A stretch of 52,896 nt of DNA, taken from Acidimicrobiales bacterium. Lineage in GTDB: Bacteria > Actinomycetota > Acidimicrobiia > Acidimicrobiales > GCA-2861595. The notes below the pieces were generated by a model. That model was not told where the DNA came from. It searched no databases and saw nothing but the letters and a program-made list of their open reading frames with translations. The translations under genes were made by a program, and so were the position numbers. The stretch is from contig JAUJNQ010000002.1 of assembly GCA_030448025.1 (NCBI GenBank), positions 304,952-357,847 of the forward strand. Direction: 5' to 3'. Shown piece by piece: positions 4,073 through 36,231 of the stretch (position 1 is the stretch's first letter; each line of letters begins with the position of its first letter).

Positions 4073-5644
4073 GTGGTGGACCACGCGATGACCCCGCACC
4101 GCGAAGGGTTGGCCAGGCGCAAGGACGACGCCCTCCACGCCGGGTCGGAGCGGGCAGTCGAACGCCAGCACGCCCGGGGCAAGATGACGGCTCGGGAGAG
4201 GATCGACTACCTGCTCGACGACGGGTCGTTCCGTGAGCTGGACATGCTGGCTCGCCACCGGTCCCAAGCCATGGGGCTCGACGACCACCGGCCCTACACC
4301 GACGGCGTGGTCACGGGGTTCGGCACCGTCGACGGCCGCAGCGTGTGCGTCTTCAGTCAGGACTTCACGGTCTACGGCGGCTCCTTGGGCGAGGTCTTCG
4401 CCGAGAAGGTGCTCAAGGCCATGGACCTGGCGGTGTCCGCCGGTGTTCCCATGATCGGCATCAACGACGGTGCCGGCGCCCGCATCCAGGAGGGTGTGGT
4501 CTCGCTCGACATGTACGGCAAGATCTTCCGGCGCAACGTGGCCGCCTCGGGCGTGATCCCCCAGATCAGCGTGATACTCGGCCCCTGCGCCGGGGGGGCC
4601 GTCTACAGCCCCGCCATGACCGACTTCATCTTCATGGTCCAGGGCATCTCCCACATGTTCATCACCGGCCCCGACGTCGTCCGGGCGGTGACCGGTGAGG
4701 ACGTGACTCCCGAAGAGCTGGGCGGGGCCACCCCTCACTCCACCCGATCGGGGCTGTGCACCTTCGTCAGCCCAGACGAGAGGAGTTGCCTGACCGACGT
4801 GCGACGTCTTCTGGCGTACCTCCCGTCGAGCTGCGGGGATGACCCGCCCCACTACCCGCTCCCGGCGACGGCGCCCGGGCAGGGGAACGGTCCCCTGAGC
4901 GAGCTGGTAGAGCTCCTCCCGCCCGGTCCCAGCGACCCCTATGACGTGAGGACGGTCATCCGAGCCGTCGTCGACGGTGGCGAGCTGCTCGAGTGCTTCG
5001 CCGACTGGGCCCCCAACATCGTGTGCACCTTCGCCCGCCTCGACGGCCACCCGGTGGGCATCGTGGCCAACCAGCCCGGTGTCCTGGCCGGGGTGCTCGA
5101 CGTGGACGCCTCGGAGAAGGCGGCCCGGTTCGTGCGCACGTGCGATGCGTTCCGGCTCCCGCTGGTGACGCTGGTGGACGTGCCCGGCTTCCTGCCCGGC
5201 ACCGACCAGGAGCACGGTGGCGTCATCCGCCACGGCGCCAAGCTGCTGTACGCCTTCTGCGAGGCCACCGTCCCCCGTATCCAGGTGATCACCCGGAAGG
5301 CCTACGGGGGCGCCTACGTGGTGATGAACGCCAAGGCCATCGGAGCCGACCTCGCCTATGCCTGGCCCGCGGCCGAGGTGGCGGTCATGAGACCCCAGGC
5401 GGCGGTGGAGGTCCTGCATCGCCGAGAGCTGGCCGAGGCTGTGGATCACGCCGCTCGAAGAGCCGAGCTGGCCAAGGAGTACGCCGAGGTGCACGTGAAC
5501 CCGTACCTCGCTGCCGAGCGCGGCTACGTCGACGACGTCATCGATCCGGCGGACACTCGCGACGTCCTGGTTCGCGGTTTGGCCCTGCTCCGGTCCAAGC
5601 GGGCGGAGGCCTCGTCGAGGAAGCATGGCAACGTCCCCCTCTGA
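4073..5644 (+). CDS. Acyl-CoA (acetyl/propionyl-CoA) carboxylase, carboxyltransferase subunit
   Basis: This 523-residue protein is the beta subunit that transfers carboxyl from carboxybiotin to an acyl-CoA, making malonyl- or methylmalonyl-CoA. Family hallmarks are HAGSERAVERQHARGKMTARERI at the front, the oxyanion-hole glycines in GINDGAGARIQEG and GPCAGGAVYSPA in the N-domain, and VDVPGFLPGTDQEHGGVIRHGAKLL with RKAYGGAYVVMNAK in the C-domain. Length is normal for PccB/AccD types. Substrate preference cannot be read from sequence alone. The GTG at 4073 leaves about 12 residues before the conserved region, as in relatives. The gene overlaps the epsilon subunit by 20 bases. No biotin-carboxylase alpha subunit is in the window. 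Confidence 0.9.
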   Translation: MVDHAMTPHREGLARRKDDALHAGSERAVERQHARGKMTARERIDYLLDDGSFRELDMLARHRSQAMGLDDHRPYTDGVVTGFGTVDGRSVCVFSQDFTVYGGSLGEVFAEKVLKAMDLAVSAGVPMIGINDGAGARIQEGVVSLDMYGKIFRRNVAASGVIPQISVILGPCAGGAVYSPAMTDFIFMVQGISHMFITGPDVVRAVTGEDVTPEELGGATPHSTRSGLCTFVSPDERSCLTDVRRLLAYLPSSCGDDPPHYPLPATAPGQGNGPLSELVELLPPGPSDPYDVRTVIRAVVDGGELLECFADWAPNIVCTFARLDGHPVGIVANQPGVLAGVLDVDASEKAARFVRTCDAFRLPLVTLVDVPGFLPGTDQEHGGVIRHGAKLLYAFCEATVPRIQVITRKAYGGAYVVMNAKAIGADLAYAWPAAEVAVMRPQAAVEVLHRRELAEAVDHAARRAELAKEYAEVHVNPYLAAERGYVDDVIDPADTRDVLVRGLALLRSKRAEASSRKHGNVPL

Positions 5645-5870
5645 ATCGCCCCCCTCCGGGCCGGTGGTGTCCGAGGTCAGCCCGACGGCTTCGCCCCAGG
5701 TGGCGGCGGCCATCGTGGCCGCCGTCGACGCCCTGTGGCTCGGCCCGTCGGCGACCCGCCCGGGCGAGACGCCCGCCGCCTCGCGGTCTTCCTGGCGCTT
5801 CTCGGGCCGGTGGTGGAGCCGGCGGAAGGCACCGAGCGCTTCGGGGACAAGCTCCCGGCGGCCGTGGTGA
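5625..5870 (+). CDS. Acyl-CoA carboxylase epsilon subunit
   Basis: This 81-residue small subunit is found with actinobacterial acyl-CoA carboxylases, where it stabilises and stimulates the alpha-beta complex. A variable Ser/Pro-rich front leads to the helix PQVAAAIVAAVDALW and the diagnostic tail WRFSGRWWSRRK. Its ATG sits inside the last codons of the carboxyltransferase gene in another frame, implying translational coupling. The residues after the WW motif (APSASGTSSRRPW) are not conserved in relatives, to my knowledge. Confidence 0.8.
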   Translation: MATSPSESPPSGPVVSEVSPTASPQVAAAIVAAVDALWLGPSATRPGETPAASRSSWRFSGRWWSRRKAPSASGTSSRRPW

Positions 5871-5910
5871 GCTCGCTGCCGCGAGCCAGACCGTTGCCGC
5901 AATGACACCA

Positions 5911-33106: not shown

Positions 33107-33514
33107 TCTTGCGCTCGTCTTCACGCACAGTCCCGGAAAGGAGGCCGACAGCGGGCGCCGTCGGCCAACGGGGAAGAGAACGAGCAACCGATACGGGGCG
33201 CGTAACGACGGCTCTGGGGCTGGTCGCCACACCGCTCCTGAGCATCCGACTGGCCCGACTTCGGCGGCCTCCTTGCGAAAGCCCAGGGGATCGATCCGCT
33301 CGGGGCGGCCTACTGTTCCTTCCTCTCATGGAGTTGATCCGCCCTTCGACTTGCTTCGGACCGAAAGCTCGGGGCGTTGGTCACGCTCAAGCGCGATGGT
33401 CGTCCACAGGTGTCGAACGTCATGTACGCGGTCCGGGAGGGGCTCGTGCGCATCTCCGTCACCGATGGCAGGGCCAAGACGGCGAACCTGCGTCGTGACC
33501 CCCGCCTCGCTTTA

Positions 33515-33522
33515 CGTGAGTC
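33515..33522. repeat. Left target-site duplication (8 bp)
   Basis: CGTGAGTC here is repeated exactly at 34030-34037 on the other side of the element. Eight bases is the usual duplication length for IS256-family elements. Confidence 0.75.
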
Positions 33523-33548
33523 AGTCAAGTCGGCTGAAGTGGTGTAAC
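33523..33548 (+). repeat. Left terminal inverted repeat of the IS256-type element
   Basis: It pairs with 34004-34029 on the opposite strand, with 20 of 26 positions matching. Confidence 0.7.
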
Positions 33549-33562
33549 TGCTCGTCGGCACT

Positions 33563-33910
33563 TCACGCAGCTTCGAGCTCGGCCACCTCCTTCCCGTCCT
33601 CGACCTGGTCGGTGAGGACGAGGACCAGGGACTCGGCCGACAGGTAGCGACGTCCGACCAGCCATTCGTCGTTCTGCTCCAGGTCGATGTCTCCGACCCG
33701 GGTCTCCCAGGGCCGGGACCGATAGCCGTTGCGGTGCGTGGCCCGCTGCGAGCTCCGCTCGCCGTGGTTGGCACCGATGTCGGAGCTGATCTCTGCTTCC
33801 ATCAGCTCGCGAGCCACCAGCGCCACTGCTTCGCGCAGGAAGTCGCCGTGCTCTTCGATGAGGGTCTTGGCGACGACCTCCGCGGTCGTCATGCTTTGCC
33901 TTGCGGTCAT
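33563..33910 (-). pseudogene. IS256-family (mutator-type) transposase, internally deleted
   Basis: The frame encodes 115 residues, where a full transposase has about 400. It starts with the family N-terminus (LREAVALVARELMEAEISSDIGA, then RATHRNGYRSRPWETRVGDIDLE) and passes directly into the family C-terminus (QNDEWLVGRRYLSAESLVLVL). The DDE catalytic centre is gone, and the join lies at a shared Leu-Glu, suggesting deletion between short homologies. The ATG at 33910 follows an AAAGGAACACC ribosome-binding site. The short protein might still bind the inverted repeats and act as an inhibitor, but that is speculation. Confidence 0.75.
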
Positions 33911-34003
33911 CGTGGTGTTCCTTTCGTCGATCGAGGTGGTTCTCAACCGACGAGTCTGGAGCCTGCGATGGCCGCTCTGGCTCTGGCGACCATCGCTGGG
34001 CTC

Positions 34004-34029
34004 GTTACACCACTTCTACCAACACGACC
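34004..34029 (-). repeat. Right terminal inverted repeat of the IS256-type element
   Basis: Read on the reverse strand it begins GGTCGTGTTGGTA and continues into the GAAGTGGTGTAAC core shared with the left end. Confidence 0.7.
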
Positions 34030-34037
34030 CGTGAGTC
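34030..34037. repeat. Right target-site duplication (8 bp)
   Basis: CGTGAGTC is an exact copy of 33515-33522 and immediately precedes the resumed PPOX coding sequence (VSRPDGW). Confidence 0.75.
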
Positions 34038-34261
34038 GACCGGACGGCTGGGCCTACCTCGTCCTCGAAGGCGACGCCGAGCTGACGGGAGTGGCCGAGG
34101 CTGTTGACGACGCGGTTGTCGACGAGCTGGTGGAGCTGTACCGGTCCCTTCAGGGAGAGCATCCCGATTGGGACGAGTACCGCCGAGCCATGGTGGCCGA
34201 CTGCCGCCTGATCGTTCGCCTCGGCCCGAAGCACGCCTTCGGGATGTGGCCCGAAGGCTGA

Positions 34262-34639: not shown

Positions 34640-35088
34640 GTGGTCGCCATCCGCACGCAAGTCGTCTTCGACGCCGCTGAACCCCACGCGCTGGCGGCCT
34701 TCTGGGCCGACGCCCTCCATTACGAGCACGAGGACATCGACGCCTTCGTCAGCGGCTTGGTGAATGCCGGCCACGTGCCGGTCGAGTACACCGTCGAGAT
34801 TGACGGCAAGCGACGTTGGCGGTCCGTCGCTTCCCTGCGCCATCCCGACGACCCGGTCGACGAGCGCGGGTCGAGCATGGGCCGGCGCATCCTCTTCCAG
34901 GCGGTCCCCGAGCCCAAGACGGTGAAGAACCGCGTCCATCTCGACCTCCTCGTCGGACCCGAGCACCACGATTCCGAGGTCGGACGCCTCCAGGCCTGGG
35001 CGCGACCGTCGTCGGTGTCCATGACGGCGACGAGGGCCGATGGACGCTGCTGGTCGACCCGGAAGGCAACGAGTTCGACGTCTCGTGA
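34640..35088 (+). pseudogene. VOC/glyoxalase-family protein with a frameshift
   Basis: The front frame (GTG 34640) gives TQVVFDAAEPHALAAFWADALHYE, MGRRILFQAVPEPKTVKNRVHLDLLV and HHDSEVGRLQA. Near 35001 one C appears missing from a CCC run, and the rest continues in another frame as LGATVVGVHDGDEGRWTLLVDPEGNEFDVS before TGA 35086-35088. Joined, this is a full-length vicinal-oxygen-chelate protein of the type seen in actinobacterial accessory genes, with metal-ligand His and Glu in the expected places. Substrate unknown. A single homopolymer loss could be a sequencing error, in which case the gene is intact. Confidence 0.7.
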
Positions 35089-35379: not shown

Positions 35380-36231
35380 GTGCAACGAGAAGCACTGCTC
35401 AGCCAGTGCGGCCGGTATCGCTACTCGTTGGGCCGCCGGTGGAGCTCTGGTCTAACAGCGGTGTGGGTAATGACCTATCCCTCGGTTGCCGACGCCGTCG
35501 TTGACGACCCCACCGTCAAGCGGGTGGTTGCCTTCTCGCAGCGCGATTGCATGGGAGGTGCACAGATCGTGAACCTCTTCGGGTACCGCACGCCATACCC
35601 TACGGATCTTCTGCACGCCGACGACCCCGTCGGTCCGGAGACCGACACACATCTCGCTGAAGCTCTCGGATCCGGCGATCTCCTCGTCGCTGCGTGGGGT
35701 GACTCCGTTGTGCTTCACACACCGCTTGGACAAGAGCGTCTGCGCGTCCTGCGCTCGCTGCTCAGTGACGTGCCCATGGTCTGTTTGGGCACCACGAAGT
35801 CCGGGCACCCTCGGCATCCGGCTCGGTTGGCCGCGTCAACCCCGTTCGTTCCATGGGAGTGGCCAGCACCATCCACCCCACAGGTGTCTAACGACGAGGA
35901 CCAGGTCGTGCAGTACTTCGAGCTCTGGCTCCTCGAGAAGGGCTGGACCATCAAGCGTGGGCAAGGATGGCCAGACGTGGTCGCAGAGCGTGATGGCCGC
36001 CTTCTGGTCGCCGAGGCGAAGGGTGCAACGGGCCAAATGGGTCTTGACGTCGATACTGGCTACGGTCAGCTGCTCCGTCGGATGGAGCACCGTGACGTTC
36101 CCTTGACCTACGGGCTTGTTGTGCCCACCGCGCTGCGGGACTTTGCTCTCCGCGTGTCCGATGAGGTGCGAGCCGCGCTTGGCATCACCGTGTATGTGGT
36201 TGACGCAAACGGCGAAGTCGCAGTGGTGTGA
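35380..36231 (+). CDS. DUF1643 domain fused to a PD-(D/E)XK nuclease-like domain
   Basis: This protein is 283 residues long. Residues about 5-160 match DUF1643: a RYRYSLGRRW front, the SVADAVVDDPTVKRVVAFSQR segment, GGAQIVNLFGYR, DDPVGPETDTHL, VAAWGDSV and CLGTTKSGHPRHPARL. The usual asparagine-rich LNPSTAD start is MTYPSVAD here. Residues about 172-283 form a restriction-endonuclease-like fold: a helix with Glu173, then GWPDVVAERDGRLLVAEAKG with Asp199, Glu212 and Lys214 as the PD-x12-ExK centre, and GQLLRRM (Gln230) as a Mrr/McrBC-like motif. DUF1643 has no established function. The nuclease half and the mobile setting suggest a defence or nucleic-acid-processing role, which is an inference. 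Base composition is visibly lower in GC than neighbours, suggesting transfer. Confidence 0.75.
   Translation: MQREALLSQCGRYRYSLGRRWSSGLTAVWVMTYPSVADAVVDDPTVKRVVAFSQRDCMGGAQIVNLFGYRTPYPTDLLHADDPVGPETDTHLAEALGSGDLLVAAWGDSVVLHTPLGQERLRVLRSLLSDVPMVCLGTTKSGHPRHPARLAASTPFVPWEWPAPSTPQVSNDEDQVVQYFELWLLEKGWTIKRGQGWPDVVAERDGRLLVAEAKGATGQMGLDVDTGYGQLLRRMEHRDVPLTYGLVVPTALRDFALRVSDEVRAALGITVYVVDANGEVAVV

What the first reader, a model, noticed from the sequence alone, without database searches (positions are those of the whole stretch)
35380..36231. DUF1643 fused to a PD-(D/E)XK nuclease-like domain in an accessory island
The C-terminal part shows Asp199, Glu212-x-Lys214 and a downstream Gln, the restriction-endonuclease-fold pattern, attached to a domain of unknown function. 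DUF1643 proteins are often encoded in mobile regions. The gene has lower GC than its neighbours and sits beside an insertion element and pseudogenes. A nuclease with an uncharacterised partner domain in such a setting is a reasonable candidate for an undescribed defence or DNA-processing protein.
Basis: partly seen in the sequence, partly recalled or inferred. Interest (0 to 1): 0.66.

Follow-up and report, generated by a model that had tools for sequence, protein, structure and literature searches.

The report
Nuclease fused to unknown DUF1643 domain
This gene joins a probable DNA-cutting domain to DUF1643, a very common phage and plasmid domain whose function is unknown, and a related bacterium carries the same two parts as neighbouring overlapping genes, which suggests that they work together and gives a way to find out what DUF1643 does.

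Summary
The ORF at 35380-36231 is intact (283 aa). Residues 14-147 are DUF1643 (E=3.7e-31). Residues 168-283 form a separate PD-(D/E)XK domain: Glu173, Asp199, Glu212-x-Lys214 and Gln230 are conserved in a family of actinobacterial relatives, the model is confident (pLDDT 93), and XisH is the best structural match (Z 10.4).

No second fusion turned up among about 90 DUF1643 and 25 nuclease loci, but the pairing is not isolated. In a Cellulomonas genome the same nuclease overlaps a DUF1643 gene by ATGA. In a genus-mate the nuclease lies beside a uracil-DNA-glycosylase (UDG)-like remnant. Elsewhere the nuclease overlaps a type ISP restriction-modification gene or a GIY-YIG gene, so it is a swappable, restriction-associated cutting module.

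DUF1643 resembles the UDG fold (UdgX Z about 6, whole domain), but profile comparison fails, so that link is a lead only. The window copy has lost the otherwise invariant Asn of M-L-N-P-S (59/59 others; here Tyr).

Most likely this is a horizontally acquired nuclease in which DUF1643 selects the DNA target and the C-terminal domain cuts. Defence is plausible but unproven: nothing beside the gene matches a known defence system. It is a new variant of a known kind.

The parts
35380..36231 (+). Whole gene: DUF1643 - PD-(D/E)XK fusion protein, 283 aa, GTG start
   Evidence: Open frame; start agrees with homologues; AlphaFold2 pLDDT 93 over the full length
35419..35820 (+). DUF1643 domain (residues 14-147), alpha/beta fold
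   Evidence: PF07799 E=3.7e-31; phrog_3230 E=1.3e-43
35473..35478 (+). Thr32-Tyr33 in place of the Leu-Asn of the M-L-N-P-S-T-A-D motif
   Evidence: N in 59 of 59 other DUF1643 sequences, Y here
35815..35820 (+). His146-Pro147, conserved second motif of DUF1643 (kept)
   Evidence: H in 58 of 59 other sequences
35881..36228 (+). C-terminal PD-(D/E)XK nuclease domain (residues 168-283)
   Evidence: Alignment of 10 family members; XisH 2okf Z 10.4, rmsd 3.2, 111 aligned; 2inb Z 10.3
35896..35898 (+). Glu173, first-helix acidic residue
   Evidence: Nearly invariant
35974..35976 (+). Asp199, motif Asp
   Evidence: Invariant in 10 of 10
36013..36021 (+). Glu212-Ala-Lys214, ExK motif
   Evidence: Glu and Lys invariant in 10 of 10
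36067..36069 (+). Gln230 in G-L-D-V-D-T-x-Y-G-Q
   Evidence: Invariant in 10 of 10

Best explanation
A two-domain DNA nuclease, acquired horizontally. The C-terminal PD-(D/E)XK domain cuts the DNA backbone with a metal-dependent Glu/Asp/Glu-x-Lys/Gln site. The N-terminal DUF1643 domain brings it to its target, most likely by recognising a base or DNA state; its alpha/beta fold may be related to uracil-DNA glycosylases. The pair probably acts on foreign or altered DNA, in the manner of a single-chain modification- or damage-dependent restriction enzyme without a partner methyltransferase. Shown: the two domains, intact catalytic residues, the confident fold, foreign composition, and a second, separate pairing of the same two families as overlapping genes in Cellulomonas. 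Inferred: DNA cleavage, DUF1643 as the targeting part, UDG kinship, and a defence role. In this copy the invariant Asn of DUF1643 is replaced by Tyr, so DUF1643 more likely binds its target than carries out any chemistry that needs that Asn.
For: DUF1643 match. Conserved catalytic pattern across ten nuclease relatives. AlphaFold2 pLDDT 93, with matches to XisH, restriction enzymes, EndoMS and Holliday junction resolvases for residues 166-283. In Cellulomonas locus L011 the nuclease gene (4992-5351) overlaps a DUF1643 gene (5348-5908) in an ATGA, with a type III-like helicase gene upstream. The two DUF1643 domains are only 38% identical and the window one is closer to phage copies (45%), which suggests separate pairings. 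The same nuclease family starts inside the stop codon (TGATG) of a type ISP restriction-modification gene (L016/L164) and overlaps a GIY-YIG gene (L017) or is fused to one (L014). Phage DUF1643 genes lie among replication, recombination and DNA-methylation genes. The gene has the lowest GC of the window.
Against: No other fusion of the two domains was found. PADLOC finds nothing in the protein or its neighbours. Most nuclease relatives have no DUF1643 beside them, so the partner is not obligatory. The DUF1643 motif is altered, which could mean decay. Sequence-profile comparison of DUF1643 with UDG is negative, and the fold match is tied with unrelated Rossmann-like proteins.
Confidence: 0.5

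Rival explanations
1. A DNA-repair or mobile-element processing nuclease rather than a defence protein: DUF1643 finds damaged or uracil-containing DNA and the nuclease incises it, serving replication or repair of the host or of the element that brought it.
For: Phage DUF1643 lies among primase, ligase, ThyX, RecT, RusA and methyltransferase genes. In staphylococcal SCC elements a DUF1643 gene follows the SAUGI uracil-DNA-glycosylase inhibitor (PMC10821479). Closest structural match is XisH, an excision-controlling factor. EndoMS, a mismatch repair nuclease, also matches (Z 7.8).
Against: Patchy distribution: about 2% of sampled genomes of the phylum carry either family. Nuclease relatives are coupled to a restriction-modification gene.
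Confidence: 0.22
2. A relic: a horizontally acquired gene whose DUF1643 half is already decaying, with no present function.
For: Invariant Leu-Asn changed to Thr-Tyr, and further consensus positions changed; surrounded by broken genes.
Against: Full-length frame, no stop, all nuclease residues kept, high model confidence in both domains. The genus-mate's copy is itself broken, so no close copy was available for a selection test.
Confidence: 0.18
3. A chance joining in which the two domains work independently, or in which DUF1643 is only a dimerisation or folding domain.
For: Fusion seen once; most relatives of each domain occur without the other.
Against: The overlapping gene pair in Cellulomonas, by an apparently separate event.
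Confidence: 0.1

Closest known systems
XisH (fdxN-element excision controlling factor; PDB 2okf, 2inb)
   Same: Same PD-(D/E)XK-type fold over the whole C-terminal domain (Z 10.4, rmsd 3.2, 111 aligned)
   Different: 19% identity; no DUF1643 domain; no evidence here for an XisI-like partner or a role in excision
DUF1643 (PF07799 / phrog_3230), stand-alone phage and plasmid proteins of about 160 aa
   Same: Residues 14-147 match over the full model; up to 46% identity to phage copies
   Different: Fused to a nuclease; the invariant Asn of M-L-N-P-S is Tyr here
UDG-superfamily defence glycosylases Brig1 and Brig3 (PMC11078745, PMC13160076)
   Same: Possible fold kinship of DUF1643 with the UDG superfamily; both would be DNA-base-directed
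   Different: Kinship not shown by sequence; Brig1 is reported as a glycosylase without a backbone-cutting activity, whereas this protein has a nuclease domain; the putative active-site Asn is lost
Type IV (modification-dependent) restriction enzymes such as McrBC and GmrSD
   Same: Concept of a reader part plus a nuclease part without a protecting methyltransferase; the McrBC nuclease subunit is among the structural matches (Z 7.4)
   Different: No NTPase; DUF1643 is unlike their reader domains; modified-base specificity untested

Membership tests
PD-(D/E)XK nuclease superfamily | Core of alpha-beta-beta-beta-alpha-beta | tested here: met
   H173-186, E190-193, E200-204, E207-213, H220-233, E242-249 in a pLDDT 93 model; the best structural matches are PD-(D/E)XK proteins
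PD-(D/E)XK nuclease superfamily | Conserved Asp and (D/E)-x-K residues in the expected strands | tested here: met
   Asp199 and Glu212-x-Lys214 invariant in 10 of 10 relatives
PD-(D/E)XK nuclease superfamily | Metal-dependent DNA cleavage | not testable with these tools
   Needs protein
DUF1643 (PF07799) | Profile match above the curated cut-off | tested here: met
   108.4 bits against 22.5
DUF1643 (PF07799) | Asn of the M-L-N-P-S motif (invariant in the sampled family) | tested here: not met
   Tyr33 here; Asn in 59 of 59 others. Membership rests on the profile; canonical activity may be lost
Uracil-DNA glycosylase superfamily (for DUF1643) | UDG alpha/beta/alpha fold | tested here: inconclusive
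   UdgX Z 6.0 and family 4 UDG Z 5.8 over residues 6-159; canonical DUF1643 to UdgX Z 6.0, 126 of 159 aligned, but tied with topoisomerase I and DNPH1
Uracil-DNA glycosylase superfamily (for DUF1643) | Detectable sequence homology by profile comparison | tested here: not met
   hhalign probability 0.1-0.2%; no PF03167 hit in 54 DUF1643 members. So it is not filed as a UDG
Uracil-DNA glycosylase superfamily (for DUF1643) | Base excision activity | not testable with these tools
   Needs protein
XisH | XisH sequence family and XisI partner gene | tested here: not met
   No Pfam or NCBIfam hit in the domain; window neighbours examined by Pfam are other families
Known anti-phage defence system | Match to a catalogued defence model or a defence neighbourhood | tested here: not met
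   PADLOC finds nothing in the protein or in four neighbours; relatives elsewhere do adjoin restriction-modification genes

The most novel reading that the evidence does not exclude
DUF1643 is an unrecognised UDG-like base-recognition family, widespread on phages, conjugative plasmids and SCC elements, and this protein is a single-chain base-directed restriction enzyme: a DUF1643 reader that has lost its catalytic Asn, joined to a PD-(D/E)XK cutter.
Probability: 0.22. Interest if true: 0.75.

Novelty: new variant of a known kind. Interest (0 to 1): 0.5.

Why it matters
DUF1643 is found in at least 141 of about 50,700 phage records and 1,147 plasmid records, mostly conjugative, and no function is stated in any paper seen here. 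A fusion to a nuclease, plus an overlapping gene pair, is the first direct clue that I found that it acts on DNA together with a cutting enzyme. It also gives a small test protein for asking what DUF1643 recognises. Separately, the nuclease family, not recognised by Pfam, NCBIfam or PADLOC, appears as a swappable partner of several restriction-type genes in Actinomycetota.

Tried and rejected
Missed stop or frameshift making a false fusion: rejected (intact frame, both domains confidently modelled). Sequence hits to solved structures: none meaningful for either domain. Filing DUF1643 as a UDG by sequence: hhalign with two alignment sets, local and global, gave nothing. Canonical DUF1643 fold search: no Foldseek hit below 0.001, Z at most 6.1, so the fold is not settled. 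Relatives of the nuclease in viral contigs: none. A second fusion: none by tblastn in phages or plasmids (no record covers 80% of the query); a 307-aa Streptomyces plasmid DUF1643 protein carries an unrelated tail. A DUF1643 gene beside the nuclease at ten further loci: none. Known function for DUF1643 in the literature: 13 papers mention it; the passages read in three, and the titles and abstracts of the rest, give no function.

Full report
What is there. The frame 35380-36231 (+) is open from a GTG to a TGA and encodes 283 residues. Its first residues (MQREALLSQCGRYRY) line up with the starts of phage DUF1643 proteins, so the start is credible. Residues 14-147 match DUF1643 (PF07799, 108 bits, E=3.7e-31; phrog_3230, E=1.3e-43). 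Nothing in Pfam, NCBIfam or PADLOC matches the C-terminal 116 residues.

The C-terminal domain. One scan of bacterial and archaeal genomes gave nine loci encoding relatives, all of Actinomycetota; further whole-genome searches added more. In the alignment of ten members, Asp199, Glu212, Lys214 and Gln230 (window numbering) are invariant, Glu173 nearly so, within the signature AEAKGxTxxxGLDVDTxYGQLLRR. AlphaFold2 on a 60-row alignment gave mean pLDDT 93, with the alpha-beta-beta-beta-alpha-beta order expected of PD-(D/E)XK enzymes. The best structural matches for residues 173-283 are the XisH proteins 2okf and 2inb (Z 10.4 and 10.3), followed by repair and restriction nucleases, EndoMS, McrBC and Holliday junction resolvases. 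That this is a PD-(D/E)XK domain with an intact site is well supported. That it cuts DNA is inferred.

Partners of the nuclease. Most relatives are small stand-alone genes, but several are tightly coupled to others. In a Cellulomonas genome (L011) the nuclease stop codon overlaps the start of a DUF1643 gene in an ATGA, and a type III-like helicase gene lies about 240 bp upstream. In Blastococcus saxobsidens (L016/L164) the nuclease starts inside the stop codon of a 1634-aa type ISP restriction-modification enzyme (TGATG). In Modestobacter (L017) it overlaps a GIY-YIG gene by 8 nt, and in Salsipaludibacter (L014) it is fused to a GIY-YIG domain. In the window's own genus, an Actinomycetota metagenome-assembled genome (L003/L018) has a nuclease relative beside a broken gene whose second piece resembles the UDG superfamily (PF03167, E=0.0088, below the cut-off). 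About 2% of sampled genomes of the phylum carry DUF1643 or this nuclease, so finding the two joined once and overlapping once is unlikely to be coincidence, although accessory genes do cluster. The two DUF1643 domains are only 38% identical, and the window one is nearer to phage copies (up to 46%), so the two pairings look separate.

The DUF1643 domain. It is widespread on phages (141 records) and plasmids (1,147 records, mostly conjugative) as a stand-alone protein. In phages it sits among primase, ligase, ThyX, RecT, RusA and methyltransferase genes. A published SCC element has it next to the SAUGI uracil-DNA-glycosylase inhibitor gene (PMC10821479). The conserved residues (beta strand, then x-N-P-S; N-L-F/Y-x-x-R; A-W-G; P-x-H-P) resemble the order of UDG motifs; this resemblance is from memory and is a lead. 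In structure, the window DUF1643 matches UdgX (Z 6.0) and family 4 UDG (Z 5.8) over residues 6-159, and a canonical phage DUF1643 (pLDDT 94) matches UdgX at Z 6.0 over 126 of 159 residues. But topoisomerase I and DNPH1 score the same over shorter stretches, and profile-profile comparison with 32 UDG sequences finds nothing. UDG kinship is therefore possible, not shown.

The altered motif. All 59 other DUF1643 sequences aligned have Asn at the position of window Tyr33, and the Leu before it is Thr here; His146-Pro147 is kept. If the Asn is catalytic, this copy cannot do the canonical chemistry. The nuclease residues are all kept. This fits a change from enzyme to reader, or early decay of the N-terminal half. 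No intact close orthologue was found to tell these apart.

Setting. The gene has the lowest GC of the window (63.4% against 69.5%; GC3 0.70 against 0.80-0.90 for most neighbours). Upstream lie an F420-dependent PPOX oxidoreductase gene split by a truncated Mutator-type insertion element and a glyoxalase-like gene read in two frames. On both sides are surface-polysaccharide genes. No defence gene is adjacent.

Verdict. Most likely this is a horizontally acquired nuclease whose DUF1643 half selects the target. A defence role is plausible but rests on relatives, not on this locus. The finding matters mainly because it ties a very common domain of unknown function to DNA cutting.

Noticed in passing
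33340-34261: A Rv1155-like F420-dependent PPOX oxidoreductase gene (TIGR03618, E=5.3e-17 and 1.5e-9 for the two pieces) is split by a short element carrying a truncated Mutator-family transposase (33563-33946, minus strand), bounded by GTGGTGTAAC / GTTACACCAC inverted ends.
   Followed up: partly
34640-35088: A Glyoxalase_6 domain is read in two frames (model positions 1-77 in one, 78-105 in the other), so the gene looks frameshifted.
   Followed up: partly
L016:97-5001 and L016:5001-5420: Type ISP restriction-modification enzyme overlapping the solo nuclease gene in TGATG in Blastococcus saxobsidens; the small gene could be an accessory part of this restriction system.
   Followed up: partly
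L013:3526-4275 and L170:2520-3161: DUF429 genes lie near the solo nuclease at two unrelated loci (next to it in L013, about 1.8 kb away in L170).
   Followed up: no
L171:327-1262: The nuclease domain is fused at its C-terminal side to about 190 residues that match no Pfam family.
   Followed up: no
L018:44-1169: Genus-mate contig: UDG-superfamily-like remnant in two frames followed by a nuclease relative with a disturbed N-terminus; frameshifts may be real or assembly errors.
   Followed up: partly
L149:4968-5891: A Streptomyces plasmid DUF1643 protein of 307 aa carries an uncharacterised C-terminal tail of about 130 residues.
   Followed up: no
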